From an uncultured Ruminococcus sp. (GTDB taxonomy: Bacteria; Bacillota; Clostridia; Oscillospirales; Ruminococcaceae), in NCBI GenBank assembly GCA_945876405.1, contig CAMCOJ010000050.1:1-10266 (forward strand): a DNA stretch of 10,266 nucleotides. Reading direction: 5' to 3'. Below, piece after piece: positions 2 to 10,266 of the stretch. Made by a program: the position numbers and the translations under genes. The notes under the pieces are model-generated. The model did not search any database and was not told the DNA's origin. It saw only the letters and a program-made list of their open reading frames with translations. How positions within the stretch are numbered: position 1 is the stretch's first letter; the number at the start of each line of letters is the position of its first letter.

Positions 2-55
2 GCCGATCTGCACGGAGATGACGCAGTCATCGGATGTGCAAGGCAATATAATTAA
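2..55 (+). CDS. C-terminal fragment of an unidentified protein
   Basis: The second reading frame is open from the window edge to a TAA at 53-55 and gives 17 residues ending GDDAVIGCARQYN. The stop lies directly against the left arm of an intrinsic terminator (56-82), which is the usual arrangement for a real gene end and is the main reason for choosing this frame. The fragment is too short to assign a family or function. Another frame stays open further but would run through the terminator and into the next promoter, so it is less likely. Confidence 0.45.
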   Translation, partial: ADLHGDDAVIGCARQYN

Positions 56-89
56 AAAGGGGCTGAAAAAAACAGCCTCTTTACTTTTT
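56..89 (+). terminator. Intrinsic terminator of the upstream partial gene
   Basis: A 10-bp stem pairs AAAGGGGCTG (56-65) with CAGCCTCTTT (73-82), with one G-U pair and a 7-base A-rich loop. A T-rich run (ACTTTTT) follows. It begins at the base after the upstream stop codon and insulates that gene from the GtrA unit. Confidence 0.8.
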
Positions 90-108
90 ATTAAGTATAG
101 TGTATAAT
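80..108 (+). promoter_or_regulatory. Predicted sigma-A promoter of the GtrA/oxidoreductase unit
   Basis: A perfect TATAAT -10 box lies at 103-108. A weak -35 box TTTACT at 80-85 (4 of 6 consensus bases) is 17 bases upstream. The -35 box overlaps the descending arm and T-run of the preceding terminator. Transcription would start near base 115, giving a leader of about 40 bases before the ATG at 156. No operator-like palindrome was seen. Confidence 0.6.
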
Positions 109-144
109 TAATAAAGTGTCAAAATTTATAGAAAATTTATTTTT

Positions 145-148
145 GGAG
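145..148 (+). promoter_or_regulatory. Ribosome binding site that fixes the GtrA start at 156
   Basis: GGAG at 145-148 is 7 bases from the ATG at 156 but only 1 base from an in-frame TTG at 150. The spacing therefore favours ATG 156 over the longer reading that starts at the TTG. Confidence 0.75.
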
Positions 149-155
149 TTTGTGT

Positions 156-632
156 ATGAAAGAATTGCTTGGACTCTTGTTTTCGTTTAAGTTCAGAGAG
201 CTGTTTTTCGAAAAAACTGAAAACGGACTGATAAAGTTTTTCAGGTATGCATTTGTCGGAGGGATAGCTTTTGTAGTTGATTATCTTACTTTTACTGCTG
301 TGTGCCAGTTCGGAGAGTCACAGCTTGTAACTGCACTTGCTACTGTTGCCGGATTTATTACAGGAATAATAACCAACTTTATTCTTTCCAAAAAATTTGT
401 ATTTCAGGAAGAGTCTACCGCTAAGTCGGCGTATGGCGAATTTGTCGGATATGCTGTTATAGGCATAATAGGATGCGTTCTGAATATTCTTCTTATGATG
501 TTTGCTACCGGTGTTCTTTCGGTAAACAGATACATAGCCAAGATAATAGTTGCCGTTATTGTACTGTTCTATAACTACATAGCCAGAAAAATTATTTTGT
601 ACACACCATCAGAAAAAGGAAACAGAGGTTAA
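156..632 (+). CDS. GtrA-family membrane protein
   Basis: The 158-residue protein matches the small GtrA family (usually 120-170 residues), whose characterised members help move lipid-linked sugars across the cytoplasmic membrane or otherwise take part in surface polysaccharide synthesis. After a short basic N-terminal stretch there are four hydrophobic segments at about residues 33-52, 57-76, 95-117 and 125-145. Family-typical features are [14 protein letters not shown] (30-43) at the start of helix 1, [10 protein letters not shown] (74-83) after helix 2 and [10 protein letters not shown] (140-149) at the end of helix 4. A longer reading from TTG at 150 is rejected on ribosome-site spacing. 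The stop is 5 bases before the next gene, so the two are probably co-transcribed and translationally coupled. The lipid-linked sugar it handles cannot be told from sequence. Confidence 0.88.
624..628 (+). promoter_or_regulatory. Ribosome binding site supporting a TTG start at 638
   Basis: AGAGG at 624-628, inside the last codons of the GtrA gene, lies 9 bases from TTG at 638. The TTG immediately precedes codons for [12 protein letters not shown], the expected very N-terminus of a Rossmann FAD protein. No ATG lies close by in frame, so the non-canonical start is well supported. Confidence 0.7.
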
Positions 633-4828: not shown

Positions 4829-7405
4829 ATGAAAAAAACAGGATTCAGAAGAATTCTTGCATCATTGCTTAGCGTATCTGTACTTTGCAGCTCAGCTTTT
4901 ACAGCTTTTAATGTAAGTGCTGATGCGGGGGAGAAACCACCGGAGGTTACGGATGAAGAGAGGGTATTTCCTGATCCGGATTCATTCAGTTACGATGACG
5001 TTGAGATAAACTTTGCAAAAGCACTTCAGTACGTGCTGTATTTTTACGATGCAAACAAGTGCGGATACGATGTTGATGAAAACGGCAATCCGGGACTTAA
5101 GTGGCTGGAGTGGAGAGGTGACTGTCATGTTGAGGACTATAACATTCCTCTGAAGCCTATGTCACTTGAAGGTGCCGATGCCAAGTTCGGAACAAATCTT
5201 TCCCAGGAATTCATCGATGAGTACAAGGATATCCTTGACCCGGACGGTGACGGATATATGGACTGCGGCGGTGGAATGCATGATGCCGGGGACCATGTTA
5301 AGTTCGGACTTCCGGGTTCGTATGCCGCTTCAACAGTAGGCTGGGGCTACTATGAATTCAGGGATGCATATGAAAAATCAGGTCAGCAGGAGCACGTTGA
5401 GGATATTCTCCACTGGTTCAATGACTTCTATATGAACGGAACATATCTTGACGAGGACGGAAAGGTTATTGCTTTCTGCTATCAGGTTGGCGAAGGAAAC
5501 AATGACCATAACTACTGGAATCCGCCTGAACTTCAGAGCTCGGACATGCTTCTTGACTTTGCAAGACCGGCATACTTTGCAACAGTTGACACACCTGCAA
5601 CTGATATGTGTGCAGGAACAGCAGCTTCACTTGCAATCAACTATCTGAACTTCAAGGATACAGAGCCTGAGTATGCAGAGGAAAGTCTTAAAAAAGCCAT
5701 TGCTCTTTATGACTTTGCTGTTGAGACTCATGCAGAAGACGAAGGAATGTCAGTTCTCAGCTTAGGCTATGACGGCGGTTTCTACACATCAAGCTATGAC
5801 TATGATGAACTTGCGTGGGCTGCTGTATGGCTTTATGAATGTACAGGTAATTATGACTATATTGATGATATCATTTCCGTTGATGAAAATCTCAAGGATG
5901 ATATGGGTCATGTTACATATACGGGTTATATAAAGAGAATTATCAAGACAACGGGAAGTACATGGCAGAACATCTGGGTTCACTGCTGGGATACAGTATG
6001 GGGCGGCGTTTTCGCAAAGCTTGCACCTATAACAAATACTGCACGTGACTGGTATATCTTCAGATGGAACCTTGAGTACTGGTCAGGAATCCCGCACACA
6101 TATCCGGGCGGTATGGCCGATGAGCTCTGGAACCTTCCGTACGAATATACAACAGAGCTTGATGAAAAGGATACCACATTCCTTGCAAAAACACCTGCCG
6201 GATACTCTATGCTCAACGAATACGGTTCATGCCGTTATAATACAGCAGCCGGTCTCTGTGCAGCAGTGTACAGAAAGGAAACGGCTGCAAGAGGCGAAGA
6301 GGATGCAAGATTTGCGGACTGGGCTGAAGGACAGATGGAATATGTCCTCGGAAAGAATCCTATGAATCGTCCTTATATCGTAGGCTATTCACCAACAGCA
6401 GCTTCACATCCTCACCACCGTGCAGCTCACGGTTCCTCAACACTCAGCATGGATGATCCTGTTGATCAGACACATGTACTCTGGGGTGCTCTCGTTGGCG
6501 GTCCGGATGCAACTGACTGGCACAGAGACATTACCAAGGACTATATCTACAACGAAGTAGCGGTTGACTATAACGCAGCTGTAACAGGCTGCCTTGCAGG
6601 TCTGTACGAATATTACGGAACAGAGGATATGCTTCCTGAAGAAAACTTCCCTCCGAAGGAAGAACCTGCACAGGAATTCTGGCTTGAAGCTCTTGTAAAT
6701 CAGGAAAACAAGGAAAGAACACAGTACACAGTAAGAATTCATGCTGACACATCACAGCCACCAAGATACATAGACGGACTTAAGGCACGCTACTACTTTG
6801 ATATAACTGAACTTAAGGAACACGGACAGTCAACTGACGATATCAAGGTTGAAGTTTACTATGACAAGGTTGCTGCAAATTCCAATATGGAAAAACAGGT
6901 TAAGGTTTCCGACCCTGTTCATGTAAAGGACAATGTTTACTATGTGGAAATGGACTGGACGGGAATTCCGTTCAGAGGAGCTATGGAACTTCAGCTCGGT
7001 ATTATTGTCGGTCAGGACGCTGATTACAATGCTAACTGGGACCCGACAAATGACTACAGCCGCGAGGGACTTGAGATAAGTGACGAATACGGACCAACTC
7101 AGAATATTCCTCTTTATCTTGGCGATGAGCTTGTATACGGTAACCCTCCTTTTGAGACTTCAGAAGAACCGGGAATAAAACCGACTCCTTCCGAAATTAT
7201 CTACGGCGATGTAAATCTTGACGGAAAGGTGGACGTTACAGACCTTTCATACCTCAGCCTTTACCTTATAGGCGATAAAAAACTCAGTGATGATGCATTA
7301 AAGGCTTCTGATACTGCATACGACGGAAAGGTTAATCTTGCGGATCTTGCTGCACTCAGACAGTATCTTTCCAAGGTAACGGATTCTGTAGGTCCGAAAA
7401 AGTAA
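4829..7405 (+). CDS. Dockerin-bearing GH9 cellulase (GH9-CBM3c-dockerin), first of a tandem pair
   Basis: This 858-residue secreted enzyme should hydrolyse beta-1,4-glucan chains of cellulose. A signal peptide (basic MKKTGFRR, hydrophobic core, likely cut after A31 or A33) precedes the GH9 module at about 55-600. The aspartate pair D152/D155 lies in HDAGDHVKF (catalytic base region), the histidine motif in SHPHHR (526-531), and the proton-donor glutamate is E576 in NEVAVDYN. Residues 137-145 (DPDGDGYMD) look like a calcium loop. A CBM3c-like module follows at about 615-772, including NWDPTNDYSREGL (736-748), then a short Pro/Glu linker and a type I dockerin (about 792-848) with two calcium-binding repeats starting at D794 and D828. 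Repeat 2 has Ala830 at a usual ligand position. GH9-CBM3c enzymes in other bacteria are often processive endoglucanases, which is inferred here. Docking requires a cohesin scaffold not present in this window. Confidence 0.94.
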   Translation: MKKTGFRRILASLLSVSVLCSSAFTAFNVSADAGEKPPEVTDEERVFPDPDSFSYDDVEINFAKALQYVLYFYDANKCGYDVDENGNPGLKWLEWRGDCHVEDYNIPLKPMSLEGADAKFGTNLSQEFIDEYKDILDPDGDGYMDCGGGMHDAGDHVKFGLPGSYAASTVGWGYYEFRDAYEKSGQQEHVEDILHWFNDFYMNGTYLDEDGKVIAFCYQVGEGNNDHNYWNPPELQSSDMLLDFARPAYFATVDTPATDMCAGTAASLAINYLNFKDTEPEYAEESLKKAIALYDFAVETHAEDEGMSVLSLGYDGGFYTSSYDYDELAWAAVWLYECTGNYDYIDDIISVDENLKDDMGHVTYTGYIKRIIKTTGSTWQNIWVHCWDTVWGGVFAKLAPITNTARDWYIFRWNLEYWSGIPHTYPGGMADELWNLPYEYTTELDEKDTTFLAKTPAGYSMLNEYGSCRYNTAAGLCAAVYRKETAARGEEDARFADWAEGQMEYVLGKNPMNRPYIVGYSPTAASHPHHRAAHGSSTLSMDDPVDQTHVLWGALVGGPDATDWHRDITKDYIYNEVAVDYNAAVTGCLAGLYEYYGTEDMLPEENFPPKEEPAQEFWLEALVNQENKERTQYTVRIHADTSQPPRYIDGLKARYYFDITELKEHGQSTDDIKVEVYYDKVAANSNMEKQVKVSDPVHVKDNVYYVEMDWTGIPFRGAMELQLGIIVGQDADYNANWDPTNDYSREGLEISDEYGPTQNIPLYLGDELVYGNPPFETSEEPGIKPTPSEIIYGDVNLDGKVDVTDLSYLSLYLIGDKKLSDDALKASDTAYDGKVNLADLAALRQYLSKVTDSVGPKK
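5499..5536 (+). repeat. 38-base exact match shared with the downstream paralogue (copy 1)
   Basis: This stretch, encoding the region around DHNYWNPPELQ of the first cellulase, is identical to 8088-8125 in the second with no synonymous differences, whereas the flanking codons differ. It is one of the longest of several identical blocks between the two genes; another is 5291-5319 with 7880-7908. Confidence 0.85.
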
Positions 7406-7447
7406 CTGATTTCAGGATAAAAACACCCTGGAAGAAAGGAAAATCAT

Positions 7448-10021
7448 ATGAAAAAAATCAACCGATTTCTTGCTGCATTTTTAAGCCTTTCGATGGCGTT
7501 CGGATTTGCAGCACAGCCGGTCGGTGCGTCGGCGGGTGAAGATCCGCCGCCGATTACTGACCAGACATTTCCTGACCCGGATTCATTCAGCTATGATGAT
7601 GTTGAGGTGAACTTTGCCAAGGCACTTCAGTATTCACTTACATTTTACGACGCAAACAAGTGCGGAGCCGGCATAACTGACGGATTTCTCGAATGGAGAG
7701 GCGACTGTCACGTTGAGGACTACAAAATTCCTCTCCAGCCTCTTGAGATTGTAAATGAACAGAAACACATGTACATCGGCACAGACCTTACACAGGAATT
7801 TATCGATGAATACAGGGATATACTTGATCCGGACGGTGACGGGTTCGTTGATCTCGGCGGCGGTATGCACGATGCCGGAGACCATGTTAAGTTCGGACTT
7901 CCGGGTTCATACGCAGCTTCAACAGTAGGCTGGGGCTACTATGAGTTCAGAGACGCATATATCAAAGCTGAACAGCAGGAACACGTTGAGGATATTCTTC
8001 GCTGGTTCAATGATTTTTACATGAAGGCAACCTTCCTTGACGAGGACGGAAAGGTTATTGCATACTGCTATCAGGTTGCAGAAGGTGACAATGACCATAA
8101 CTACTGGAATCCGCCTGAACTTCAGGATATGGATCACTTTGATGATTTTGCAAGACCGGCATATTTTGCGACAGCAGATGTTCCGGCGTCCGACTGCGCT
8201 GCAGGTGCTGCAGCTTCACTTGCAATCAACTACCTGAATTTTAAGGACACCGACCCTGAGTATGCGGAAAAGTCACTTAAGACTGCACTTGCTCTTTACG
8301 ATTTCGCAGTTGAGACTCACACATACATTGACAGTTTTGATGAGGAGTACAGTGACAAGGAGAGTCTTGGATACGGAAGCAGCTTCTACGATTCAAGCTA
8401 TGCCTGGGATGAACTTTCATGGGCTGCTGTATGGCTCTATGAATGCACAGGCAACTATGACTATATTGATTCAATAATCAGTCTCTCTGATACTCCGAAT
8501 GCTGACGGTTCATATGACTACACAGGTTATATGAAGCGTATCATCAGAAATACAGGAAATATCTGGCAGAACATCTGGGTACACTGCTGGGATACAGTAT
8601 GGGGCGGTGTATTTGCAAAGCTCGCACCTATAACAAATACAGCACGTGACTGGTACATATTCAGATGGAATCTTGAGTTCTGGTCGGGACTTCCGCATGC
8701 TGAACCGGGTGCGCCTGCAGACCATCTATGGGAAACAGAATACCAGTACACTGACCAGATAAGCAATGACACAGACAAACTCTCAGCCTCACCGGCCGGG
8801 TTCTCGGTGCTTAATCCTTACGGTTCCGCACGTTACAATACTGCTGCACAGCTCTGTGCTCTGGTTTACCAGAAGGAAACAGCTGCAAGAGGCGAGGAGG
8901 ATTCACAGTTCTCCGAATGGGCGAAGAGCCAGATGGAATATATCATGGGCAAAAACCCTATGAACAGATGCTATATCGTTGGATATGCTGAAAATTCAGC
9001 CTCACATCCTCATCACAGAGCGTCACATGCTTCAACAACACTCAGCATGGATGACCCGGTAGACCAGACTCACGTACTCTGGGGCGCTCTTGTAGGCGGG
9101 CCGGATGACGGTGACTGGCACAGAGATATAACTGCTGACTTTGTATACAACGAAGTTGCAGTTGACTACAATGCCGGATTCACAGGTGCATGTGCAGGAC
9201 TTTATAATTATTTCGGAACGCCTGATATGAAGCCGCAGGCTGATTTCCCTCCTAAAGAAGAGGAAAAACAGTCGTTCTTCGTTGAAGCTCTTGTAAATCA
9301 GGAGAACACTGAGAGGACGCAGTTCACTGTAAGAGTGACAAGTGCTCAGACACAGCCTCCTGCATATCTGAACGGATTCAAGGCGAGATATTACTTTAAT
9401 ATCAGCGAGCTCCTTGAACACGGGCAGTCAATTGATGATGTTTCTGTTGAGATATACTATGATCAGATTGAGTCGGATACCAAGGGTGAATACAGTTCTT
9501 CAGTAACTGGTCCGCATAAGGTTGATGACGAAACCTACTATATCGAAATGGACTGGGGTGACTACAAGTTCTTCGGAACAAGGGACATTCAGCTCGGACT
9601 TATAGCTGCTCAGGACAGCGAATTCAAGAGTAACTGGGATCCGACAAATGACTACAGCCGCGAAGGTCTTGAAAAGAGTGATTTCTTCGGAGAAACTCTT
9701 AACATTCCTCTCTACTACAACGGAAAGCTTGTTTACGGAAATCCTGTCGACGGCGACACTGAACCACCGGTAACTGAGCCTTCGGGTAATCCTTCTGACG
9801 AGCCTGGCAGTGTTAATTACGGCGATGTCAACGGAGACGGAAAGGTTGACGTAACTGACCTTTCAGTTCTTGCAATCTATCTTGCAGACGGTGCCGGAAT
9901 AGCTGACAGTAATATGAAGGCAGCAGATGTGGACGGAAGCGGAAAAGTAAATCTCGGCGACCTTGCAAGACTCAGACAGTATCTTTCAAAGATAATCGAA
10001 GTACTTGGACCTAAAAAATAA
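7448..10021 (+). CDS. Dockerin-bearing GH9 cellulase (GH9-CBM3c-dockerin), second of a tandem pair
   Basis: This 857-residue secreted paralogue of the preceding enzyme has the same domain order. A signal peptide is probably cut after ASA (A29). The GH9 module (about 47-593) has D142/D145 in HDAGDHVKF, SHPHHR (519-524) and E569 in NEVAVDYN, so it should be active. A DPDGDGFVD loop lies at 127-135. The CBM3c-like module is at about 608-766 with NWDPTNDYSREGL (729-741). The linker (about 767-789) is longer and richer in Pro, Glu, Thr and Ser than in its neighbour, and the dockerin (about 791-847) has repeats starting at D793 and D827, both with normal ligands. AAGAAAGGA (7432-7440) sits 7 bases before the ATG. 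The gap to the upstream stop is 42 bases with no T-run terminator, so the two are probably one transcript. Sequence differs most at residues 69-110, 291-305, 345-357 and 418-446 and in the linker, which may change substrate preference. Confidence 0.94.
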   Translation: MKKINRFLAAFLSLSMAFGFAAQPVGASAGEDPPPITDQTFPDPDSFSYDDVEVNFAKALQYSLTFYDANKCGAGITDGFLEWRGDCHVEDYKIPLQPLEIVNEQKHMYIGTDLTQEFIDEYRDILDPDGDGFVDLGGGMHDAGDHVKFGLPGSYAASTVGWGYYEFRDAYIKAEQQEHVEDILRWFNDFYMKATFLDEDGKVIAYCYQVAEGDNDHNYWNPPELQDMDHFDDFARPAYFATADVPASDCAAGAAASLAINYLNFKDTDPEYAEKSLKTALALYDFAVETHTYIDSFDEEYSDKESLGYGSSFYDSSYAWDELSWAAVWLYECTGNYDYIDSIISLSDTPNADGSYDYTGYMKRIIRNTGNIWQNIWVHCWDTVWGGVFAKLAPITNTARDWYIFRWNLEFWSGLPHAEPGAPADHLWETEYQYTDQISNDTDKLSASPAGFSVLNPYGSARYNTAAQLCALVYQKETAARGEEDSQFSEWAKSQMEYIMGKNPMNRCYIVGYAENSASHPHHRASHASTTLSMDDPVDQTHVLWGALVGGPDDGDWHRDITADFVYNEVAVDYNAGFTGACAGLYNYFGTPDMKPQADFPPKEEEKQSFFVEALVNQENTERTQFTVRVTSAQTQPPAYLNGFKARYYFNISELLEHGQSIDDVSVEIYYDQIESDTKGEYSSSVTGPHKVDDETYYIEMDWGDYKFFGTRDIQLGLIAAQDSEFKSNWDPTNDYSREGLEKSDFFGETLNIPLYYNGKLVYGNPVDGDTEPPVTEPSGNPSDEPGSVNYGDVNGDGKVDVTDLSVLAIYLADGAGIADSNMKAADVDGSGKVNLGDLARLRQYLSKIIEVLGPKK
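8088..8125 (+). repeat. 38-base exact match shared with the upstream paralogue (copy 2)
   Basis: Identical to 5499-5536 in the first cellulase gene. It marks the tandem pair as a duplication and is a place where recombination, or read misassembly between the copies, could occur. Confidence 0.85.
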
Positions 10022-10030
10022 TAAAATTAT

Positions 10031-10071
10031 ACCGCATACGCATTTTTACAGCGTATGCGGTGTTTTTTTTT
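10031..10071. terminator. Strong intrinsic terminator after the cellulase pair
   Basis: A perfect 11-bp stem pairs ACCGCATACGC (10031-10041) with GCGTATGCGGT (10051-10061) around a 9-base loop, followed by G and nine Ts. It begins 9 bases after the second cellulase stop. On the minus strand the hairpin is followed by a T-rich stretch too, so it may also terminate the convergent partial gene. Confidence 0.92.
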
Positions 10072-10079
10072 CAGAATAA

Positions 10080-10219
10080 TTACAAATTCTTTATCAGCAG
10101 TTTTGTGTTTGATTTTGTGAATTCACTAAGTCTGTATGAACGAATTCGTGTATTTACTATTACAGGGATAATGAATCCGTTCGAAGCAAGTCTTGCACAT
10201 CGATTGATTATTGTTTTAT
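10080..10219 (-). CDS. C-terminal fragment of an unidentified protein, cut by the contig end
   Basis: On the minus strand a frame is open from the last genomic base (10219) to a TAA at 10082-10080 and encodes 45 residues, including RCARLASNGFIIPVIVN and RIRSYRLSEFTK. The mix of a basic helix-like stretch, a short beta-prone stretch and a second basic segment might suit a winged-helix tail, but no family was recognised. Support comes from the lack of stops over the whole available length and from its convergent position 8 bases beyond the terminator. The upstream end is artificial because adapter sequence begins at 10220. Confidence 0.5.
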
Positions 10220-10266
10220 CTGTCTCTTATACACATCTCCGAGCCCACGAGACAGGCAGAAATCTC
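10220..10266. other. Untrimmed Illumina Nextera adapter (non-genomic)
   Basis: CTGTCTCTTATACACATCT at 10220-10238 is the 19-base transposase mosaic end. It is followed by CCGAGCCCACGAGAC at 10239-10253, the reverse complement of the Nextera read-2 arm. Next come AGGCAGAA at 10254-10261, which matches my memory of i7 index N703, and ATCTC at 10262-10266, the start of the P7 tail. The order and spacing are exactly those of adapter read-through, so these bases are a library artefact. Base 10220 could equally be genomic. Confidence 0.98.

What the first reader, a model, noticed from the sequence alone, without database searches (positions are those of the whole stretch)
10220..10266. Contig ends in an untrimmed Nextera adapter with a legible index
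The last 47 bases consist, in order, of the transposase mosaic end, the read-2 arm, an 8-base string equal to an i7 index and the first bases of the P7 tail. The record therefore contains synthetic DNA, the true sequence stops near 10219, and the gene fragment there is truncated by assembly. The index string could even identify the library.
Basis: partly seen in the sequence, partly recalled or inferred. Interest (0 to 1): 0.7.

Follow-up and report, generated by a model that had tools for sequence, protein, structure and literature searches.

The report
Untrimmed sequencing adapter at contig end
The last 47 bases of this bacterial contig are laboratory DNA from a sequencing kit, left on many contig ends of the same assembly; the real chromosome carries on into a gene that the assembly has split in two.

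Summary
Bases 10220-10266 equal, letter for letter, Tn5 mosaic end (ME, 19), Nextera read-2 arm (15), AGGCAGAA (8, index N703) and five bases that begin P7. It is not local: the assembly (434 contigs) holds 289 exact MEs on 289 distinct contig ends, none of the backwards control pattern. 138 run into the full i7-side arm, 135 into the full i5-side arm; the 61 tails fetched show one index pair, AGGCAGAA and TACTCCTT. The nine bases before the 289 tails carry the symmetric Tn5 target signature, so these are tagmentation ends read through and not trimmed. The chromosome continues: a Fic-domain gene on the minus strand is cut at 10219, its other end lies at the start of contig C103, and a congener carries sequence of both contigs side by side. 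Raw reads were not available. A confirmed artefact of known kind, assembly-wide; the index pair is a plate position, not a unique library name (recalled).

The parts
10220..10238 (+). Tn5 mosaic end (adapter, synthetic)
   Evidence: exact 19-base match, once in the window
10239..10253 (+). Nextera read-2 arm (adapter, synthetic)
   Evidence: exact match with ME; string listed for trimming in PMC6460022
10254..10261 (+). i7 index AGGCAGAA (N703)
   Evidence: name and letters in PMC7589761
10262..10266 (+). first five bases of the P7 tail, ATCTC
   Evidence: P7 recalled, longer tail ATCTCGTAT on contig C3 (L002)
10211..10219 (+). last nine genomic bases, TTGTTTTAT: the Tn5 cut site, a weak example of the target signature
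   Evidence: rank 90 of 289 counted from the weakest
10080..10219 (-). 3' end of a Fic-family gene truncated by the contig end: 45 codons (10083-10217) and stop codon (10080-10082)
   Evidence: 78% over 45 aa to residues 320-364 of a congener's Fic protein; Fic domain PF02661 found in the congener's protein, no Pfam match for the 45-residue fragment itself
10060..10266 (+). spurious open frame whose C-terminal residues are coded by the adapter
   Evidence: no homologue at E <= 1e-3

Best explanation
The tail is read-through into a Nextera (Tn5 tagmentation) library adapter. A library fragment ended at the base now numbered 10219, where Tn5 transposase cut and attached the mosaic end with its arm; PCR added the i7 index and P7. 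The insert was shorter than the read, the Nextera adapter was not trimmed, and the assembler carried it into the contig because no longer fragment spanned the place. Shown: letter-for-letter identity, presence at contig ends through the assembly, both arms, one index pair in the tails fetched, the Tn5 cut signature, and a chromosome that continues elsewhere. Inferred: short inserts, missing or wrong trimming, thin coverage at the gap.
For: 47 of 47 bases identical. 289 exact MEs on 289 distinct contig ends, 0 for the backwards pattern. 138 full i7-side and 135 full i5-side arms. In 61 fetched tails one i7 and one i5 index only (28 full AGGCAGAA and 3 cut short; 28 full TACTCCTT and 2 cut short). 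Junction 9-mers: G at -9 in 35%, C at -1 in 43%, profile symmetric about -5, r 0.94, as for Tn5 (PMC3046479, PMC8557372; passages). ME in only 5 of 297 family genomes, this one included. Homologous chromosome continues into a Fic gene and on to contig C103.
Against: None found against the main reading. Loose ends: raw reads unseen; the window's own 9-mer fits the Tn5 profile weakly (rank 90 of 289); positions -7 and -3 of the core show no significant bias, while -10 and -14 outside it deviate too; 16 of 289 tails have no exact full arm and were not examined one by one; why most tails stop near 43-47 bases is unexplained.
Confidence: 0.99

Rival explanations
1. The 19 bases are a natural Tn5/IS50-type transposon end, or an insertion from laboratory Tn5 mutagenesis, in the chromosome.
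For: The mosaic end derives from Tn5 ends (recalled).
Against: ME is followed by the synthetic arm, an index and the P7 start; 289 copies all at contig ends, half of the full ones with the other arm; no transposase among the five main genes of the window; four other genomes of 297 with any copy.
Confidence: 0.003
2. The tail is adapter, and its length is set by the assembly graph: contigs break where their adapter paths merge.
For: Tail lengths are narrow: 117 of 146 contig-start tails are 43-47 bases.
Against: Merging predicts shorter tails where more flank is shared with another contig of the same arm; in the 99 contig-start tails of known arm there is no such trend (Spearman -0.09, p 0.35). 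The test used 200 of 289 flanks as possible partners, those whose arm was listed.
Confidence: 0.15
3. The tail is adapter, and reads were trimmed only of the outer P5/P7 stretches (for example with a TruSeq adapter set, which shares them), leaving mosaic end, arm, index and a few bases.
For: 48 of 61 fetched tails stop 2-5 bases past the index, 26 of 31 on the i7 side and 22 of 30 on the i5 side, although the arms differ (counts).
Against: The cut is not sharp: some tails stop inside the index, others reach up to 9 bases beyond it. That TruSeq shares these stretches is recalled.
Confidence: 0.35

Closest known systems
Vector and adapter contamination at contig ends in public records
   Same: Synthetic DNA at contig ends of deposited assemblies; [quoted passage not shown]
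   Different: Here it is a library adapter rather than a cloning vector, with the index legible, and on 243 of 434 contigs.
Nextera mate-pair junction adapter left in an assembly (G194, same family)
   Same: The same mosaic end left in an assembly.
   Different: There MEs stand head to head inside contigs of about 0.7 Mb (the name of the junction is recalled); here a single ME with arm and index ends the contig.

Membership tests
Nextera adapter read-through | exact mosaic end followed by read-1 or read-2 arm | tested here: met
Nextera adapter read-through | kit index and start of P7 (or P5) after the arm | tested here: met
   AGGCAGAA then ATCTC; index letters in PMC7589761
Nextera adapter read-through | lies at contig ends, both arms, one index pair through the assembly | tested here: met
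   289 distinct contig ends (end position read from contig lengths for 32 of 143 forward copies, inferred from contig order for 111, direct for 146 reverse copies); 138 and 135 full arms; one pair in 61 fetched tails
Nextera adapter read-through | genomic 9-mer at the junction shows Tn5 target preference | tested here: met
   for the assembly as a whole, weak for the window's own site
Nextera adapter read-through | reads over the tail come from inserts shorter than the read | not testable with these tools
   no raw reads
Tn5/IS50 transposon end | end sequence continues into transposon DNA with a transposase gene | tested here: not met
   ME is followed by 28 synthetic bases and the contig ends; no transposase domain in the five main genes of the window

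The most novel reading that the evidence does not exclude
Since each tail is a physical Tn5 cut of one dual-indexed library, tailed ends mark coverage gaps to the base, and adapter-coded residues from this and similar untrimmed assemblies sit in protein catalogues as false C-termini. The second half found no support in one search (64 candidates shared words with the window's false frame, none at E <= 1e-3).
Probability: 0.3. Interest if true: 0.2.

Novelty: not a real feature. Interest (0 to 1): 0.08.

Why it matters
A quality flaw with practical weight: at least 243 of 434 contigs of this assembly carry a tail and need end-trimming before gene calling, repeat analysis or comparison. A 19-base 'repeat' or a peptide shared by frames at contig ends in such genomes is laboratory DNA. 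Beyond the tail the biology is ordinary: a Fic gene split over two contigs, next to a pair of dockerin-bearing GH9 genes.

Tried and rejected
Graph merging as the cause of tail length: tested, no trend. Natural transposon end: rejected by arms, index and contig-end position. Adapter-coded protein tails in the protein database: one search, nothing at E <= 1e-3. Paper searches (listings only, apart from passages of PMC8185305, PMC6460022, PMC7589761, PMC3046479, PMC8557372 and PMC10978663 seen): judged by title and start of abstract, no listed paper was about Nextera tails throughout a public bacterial assembly; the 20 listed of 49 papers held the adapter DNA string and none of the three adapter-coded peptides, the other 29 were not seen. 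The window's own record was not found by name: genome contigs gave relatives, and the tool says that the window's genome may be left out.

Full report
What is there. The last 47 bases of the window are, in order, CTGTCTCTTATACACATCT (10220-10238), CCGAGCCCACGAGAC (10239-10253), AGGCAGAA (10254-10261) and ATCTC (10262-10266) (identity tested). The first is the Tn5 mosaic end (ME) of Nextera kits, the second the read-2 arm; both are listed as strings to trim in PMC6460022 (passage seen). AGGCAGAA is index N703 in PMC7589761 (passage seen), there on primers with another inner arm; that the Nextera kits use the same names and letters is recalled. ATCTC fits the start of P7 (recalled); a longer tail on contig C3 reads ATCTCGTAT (L002).

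Chance or local? The window is contig C50 of an assembly of 2,537,096 bases in 434 contigs. The assembly has 289 exact MEs, 143 forward and 146 reverse, and none of the same pattern read backwards. Listed in four searches by the base 24 upstream (83 + 62 + 56 + 88 = 289), they lie on 289 different contig ends: 243 contigs, 46 of them at both ends. All 146 reverse copies start within the first 34 bases of their contig. For forward copies the contig length is known for the 32 fetched, which all end the contig; for the other 111 the end position is inferred from contigs being numbered by falling length, with six reversals of at most 41 bases. In the 61 tails fetched the contig ends at most 51 bases after the start of the ME. 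In a draw of 297 genomes of the family 5 hold the ME, this one included; the other four have 15, 2, 1 and 1 copies.

One library. 138 tails have the full read-2 arm and 135 the full read-1 arm; the other 16 were not examined one by one (examples: C10, C64 and C146 are cut short, C3 has a mismatch in the arm). Of the 61 fetched tails 31 are on the i7 side (28 with AGGCAGAA, 3 cut inside it) and 30 on the i5 side (28 with TACTCCTT, 2 cut inside it). TACTCCTT is the reverse complement of AAGGAGTA, S507 in PMC7589761. The library was therefore N703 with S507, a standard plate position used wherever the kit is used (recalled): it narrows but does not identify the library.

Physical Tn5 ends. If each tail marks a tagmentation cut, the nine genomic bases before it should show Tn5's target preference. 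Over 289 junctions G stands at -9 in 35% and C at -1 in 43%; T is raised at -8 and -6, A and T at -5, A at -4 and -2 (chi-square p between 1e-5 and 3e-20); -7 and -3 are not significant; outside the core, -10 (p 9e-4) and -14 (p 6e-5) also deviate, and -13, -11 and -16 weakly. The profile is its own reverse complement about position -5 (r 0.94; the next of ten centres tried is 0.60 at -11). PMC3046479 quotes the preference AGNTYWRANCT and a duplicated 9-bp core (passages); PMC8557372 reports a G/C pair at the edges of the 9-bp core and an influence over 19 bp (passages). The window's own 9-mer, TTGTTTTAT, is a weak example (rank 90 of 289 from the weakest).

Where the chromosome goes. Of 41 genomes searched with bases 10000-10219, a congener, G009, aligns at 77% from 10102 to the last genomic base, 10219; a local re-alignment runs four bases into the tail, one of them a mismatch. 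In G009 this DNA belongs to a 368-residue frame (start codon chosen by me) with a Fic domain (PF02661, E 4e-18). The window holds, on the minus strand, the equivalent of residues 320-364 and the stop codon (78% over 45 aa). Residues 1-133 lie on contig C103, bases 2-400, minus strand, at 81%; three other Fic-like matches in the assembly are 30-32% identical. Some 186 residues (about 0.56 kb) are thus missing between C50 and C103. The first 1900 bases of C103 hold no ME. In another congener, G007, contig C293 (22,983 bases; identical over the 5826 bases compared with JAUNJJ010000060.1, also 22,983 bases, MAG Oscillospiraceae bacterium S2A_St_21), the two GH9 genes are 99.2 and 99.5% identical to those of C50 and are followed by frames that match those of C103 at 97 and 99%. 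Between them G007 carries C50 bases 10000-10070 (100%), 56 bases of other sequence, C50 bases 10068-10092 (100%), and from there C103 bases 358-620 (98%), with the nine bases AAATTCTTT common to both edges. So C50 and C103 are very probably neighbours, and G007 has lost the inside of the Fic gene. The 47 bases are not found at this place in either congener; none of the 77 related GH9 loci fetched holds the ME, a weak control.

Mechanism and what is open. Read-through of short Nextera inserts into untrimmed adapter accounts for all of this. Not settled is why 117 of 146 contig-start tails are 43-47 bases long. Merging of contigs in the assembly graph predicts shorter tails where more flank is shared; in 99 tails of known arm, with 200 of 289 flanks as possible partners, there is no such trend (Spearman -0.09, p 0.35). 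Trimming only of the outer P5/P7 stretches would put the cut near the index in both arms, as in 48 of 61 fetched tails, but the cut is not sharp; this is inference.

Verdict. A confirmed, assembly-wide laboratory artefact without biological novelty. Trim 10220-10266 and treat the contig as ending inside a Fic gene.

Noticed in passing
G194:C7:456065-456102, G194:C8:220662-220699 and others (L081-L083): A genome of the same family (99% complete) holds MEs inside long contigs: 15 copies, 13 listed, ten of these in five head-to-head pairs like the Nextera mate-pair junction (name recalled); the DNA on the two sides may be wrongly joined there.
   Followed up: partly
G284:C36:5220-5238, G279:C112:55545-55563, G072:C194:82-100 (L084-L086): Single MEs at or near contig ends in three more family genomes; in G279 35 other bases follow the ME and in G072 81 bases lie outside it, so these may be chimeric ends.
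   Followed up: partly
L089:9361-9441 (G007:C293) against window 10068-10092 and L088:358-620 (C103): The Fic gene is internally deleted in the congener G007, with a 9-base direct repeat AAATTCTTT at both edges of the lost stretch.
   Followed up: partly
window 4829-10021: Two GH9 genes in tandem, each with GH9, CBM_3 and dockerin type I domains; about 65% identical to one another, judged by matching each to the other's ortholog in G007.
   Followed up: no
L088:588-3707 (G000:C103): Two similar frames of 518 and 521 codons in tandem with a stretch like the GH9 dockerin region (48.5% over 68 aa); G007 has one such frame at that place and a related 639-codon one after the next gene.
   Followed up: no
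window 10031-10071: Terminator-like inverted repeat with T run after the second GH9 gene (seen by eye); similar short stretches recur on C103 and C114 of the assembly and on G007:C293.
   Followed up: no
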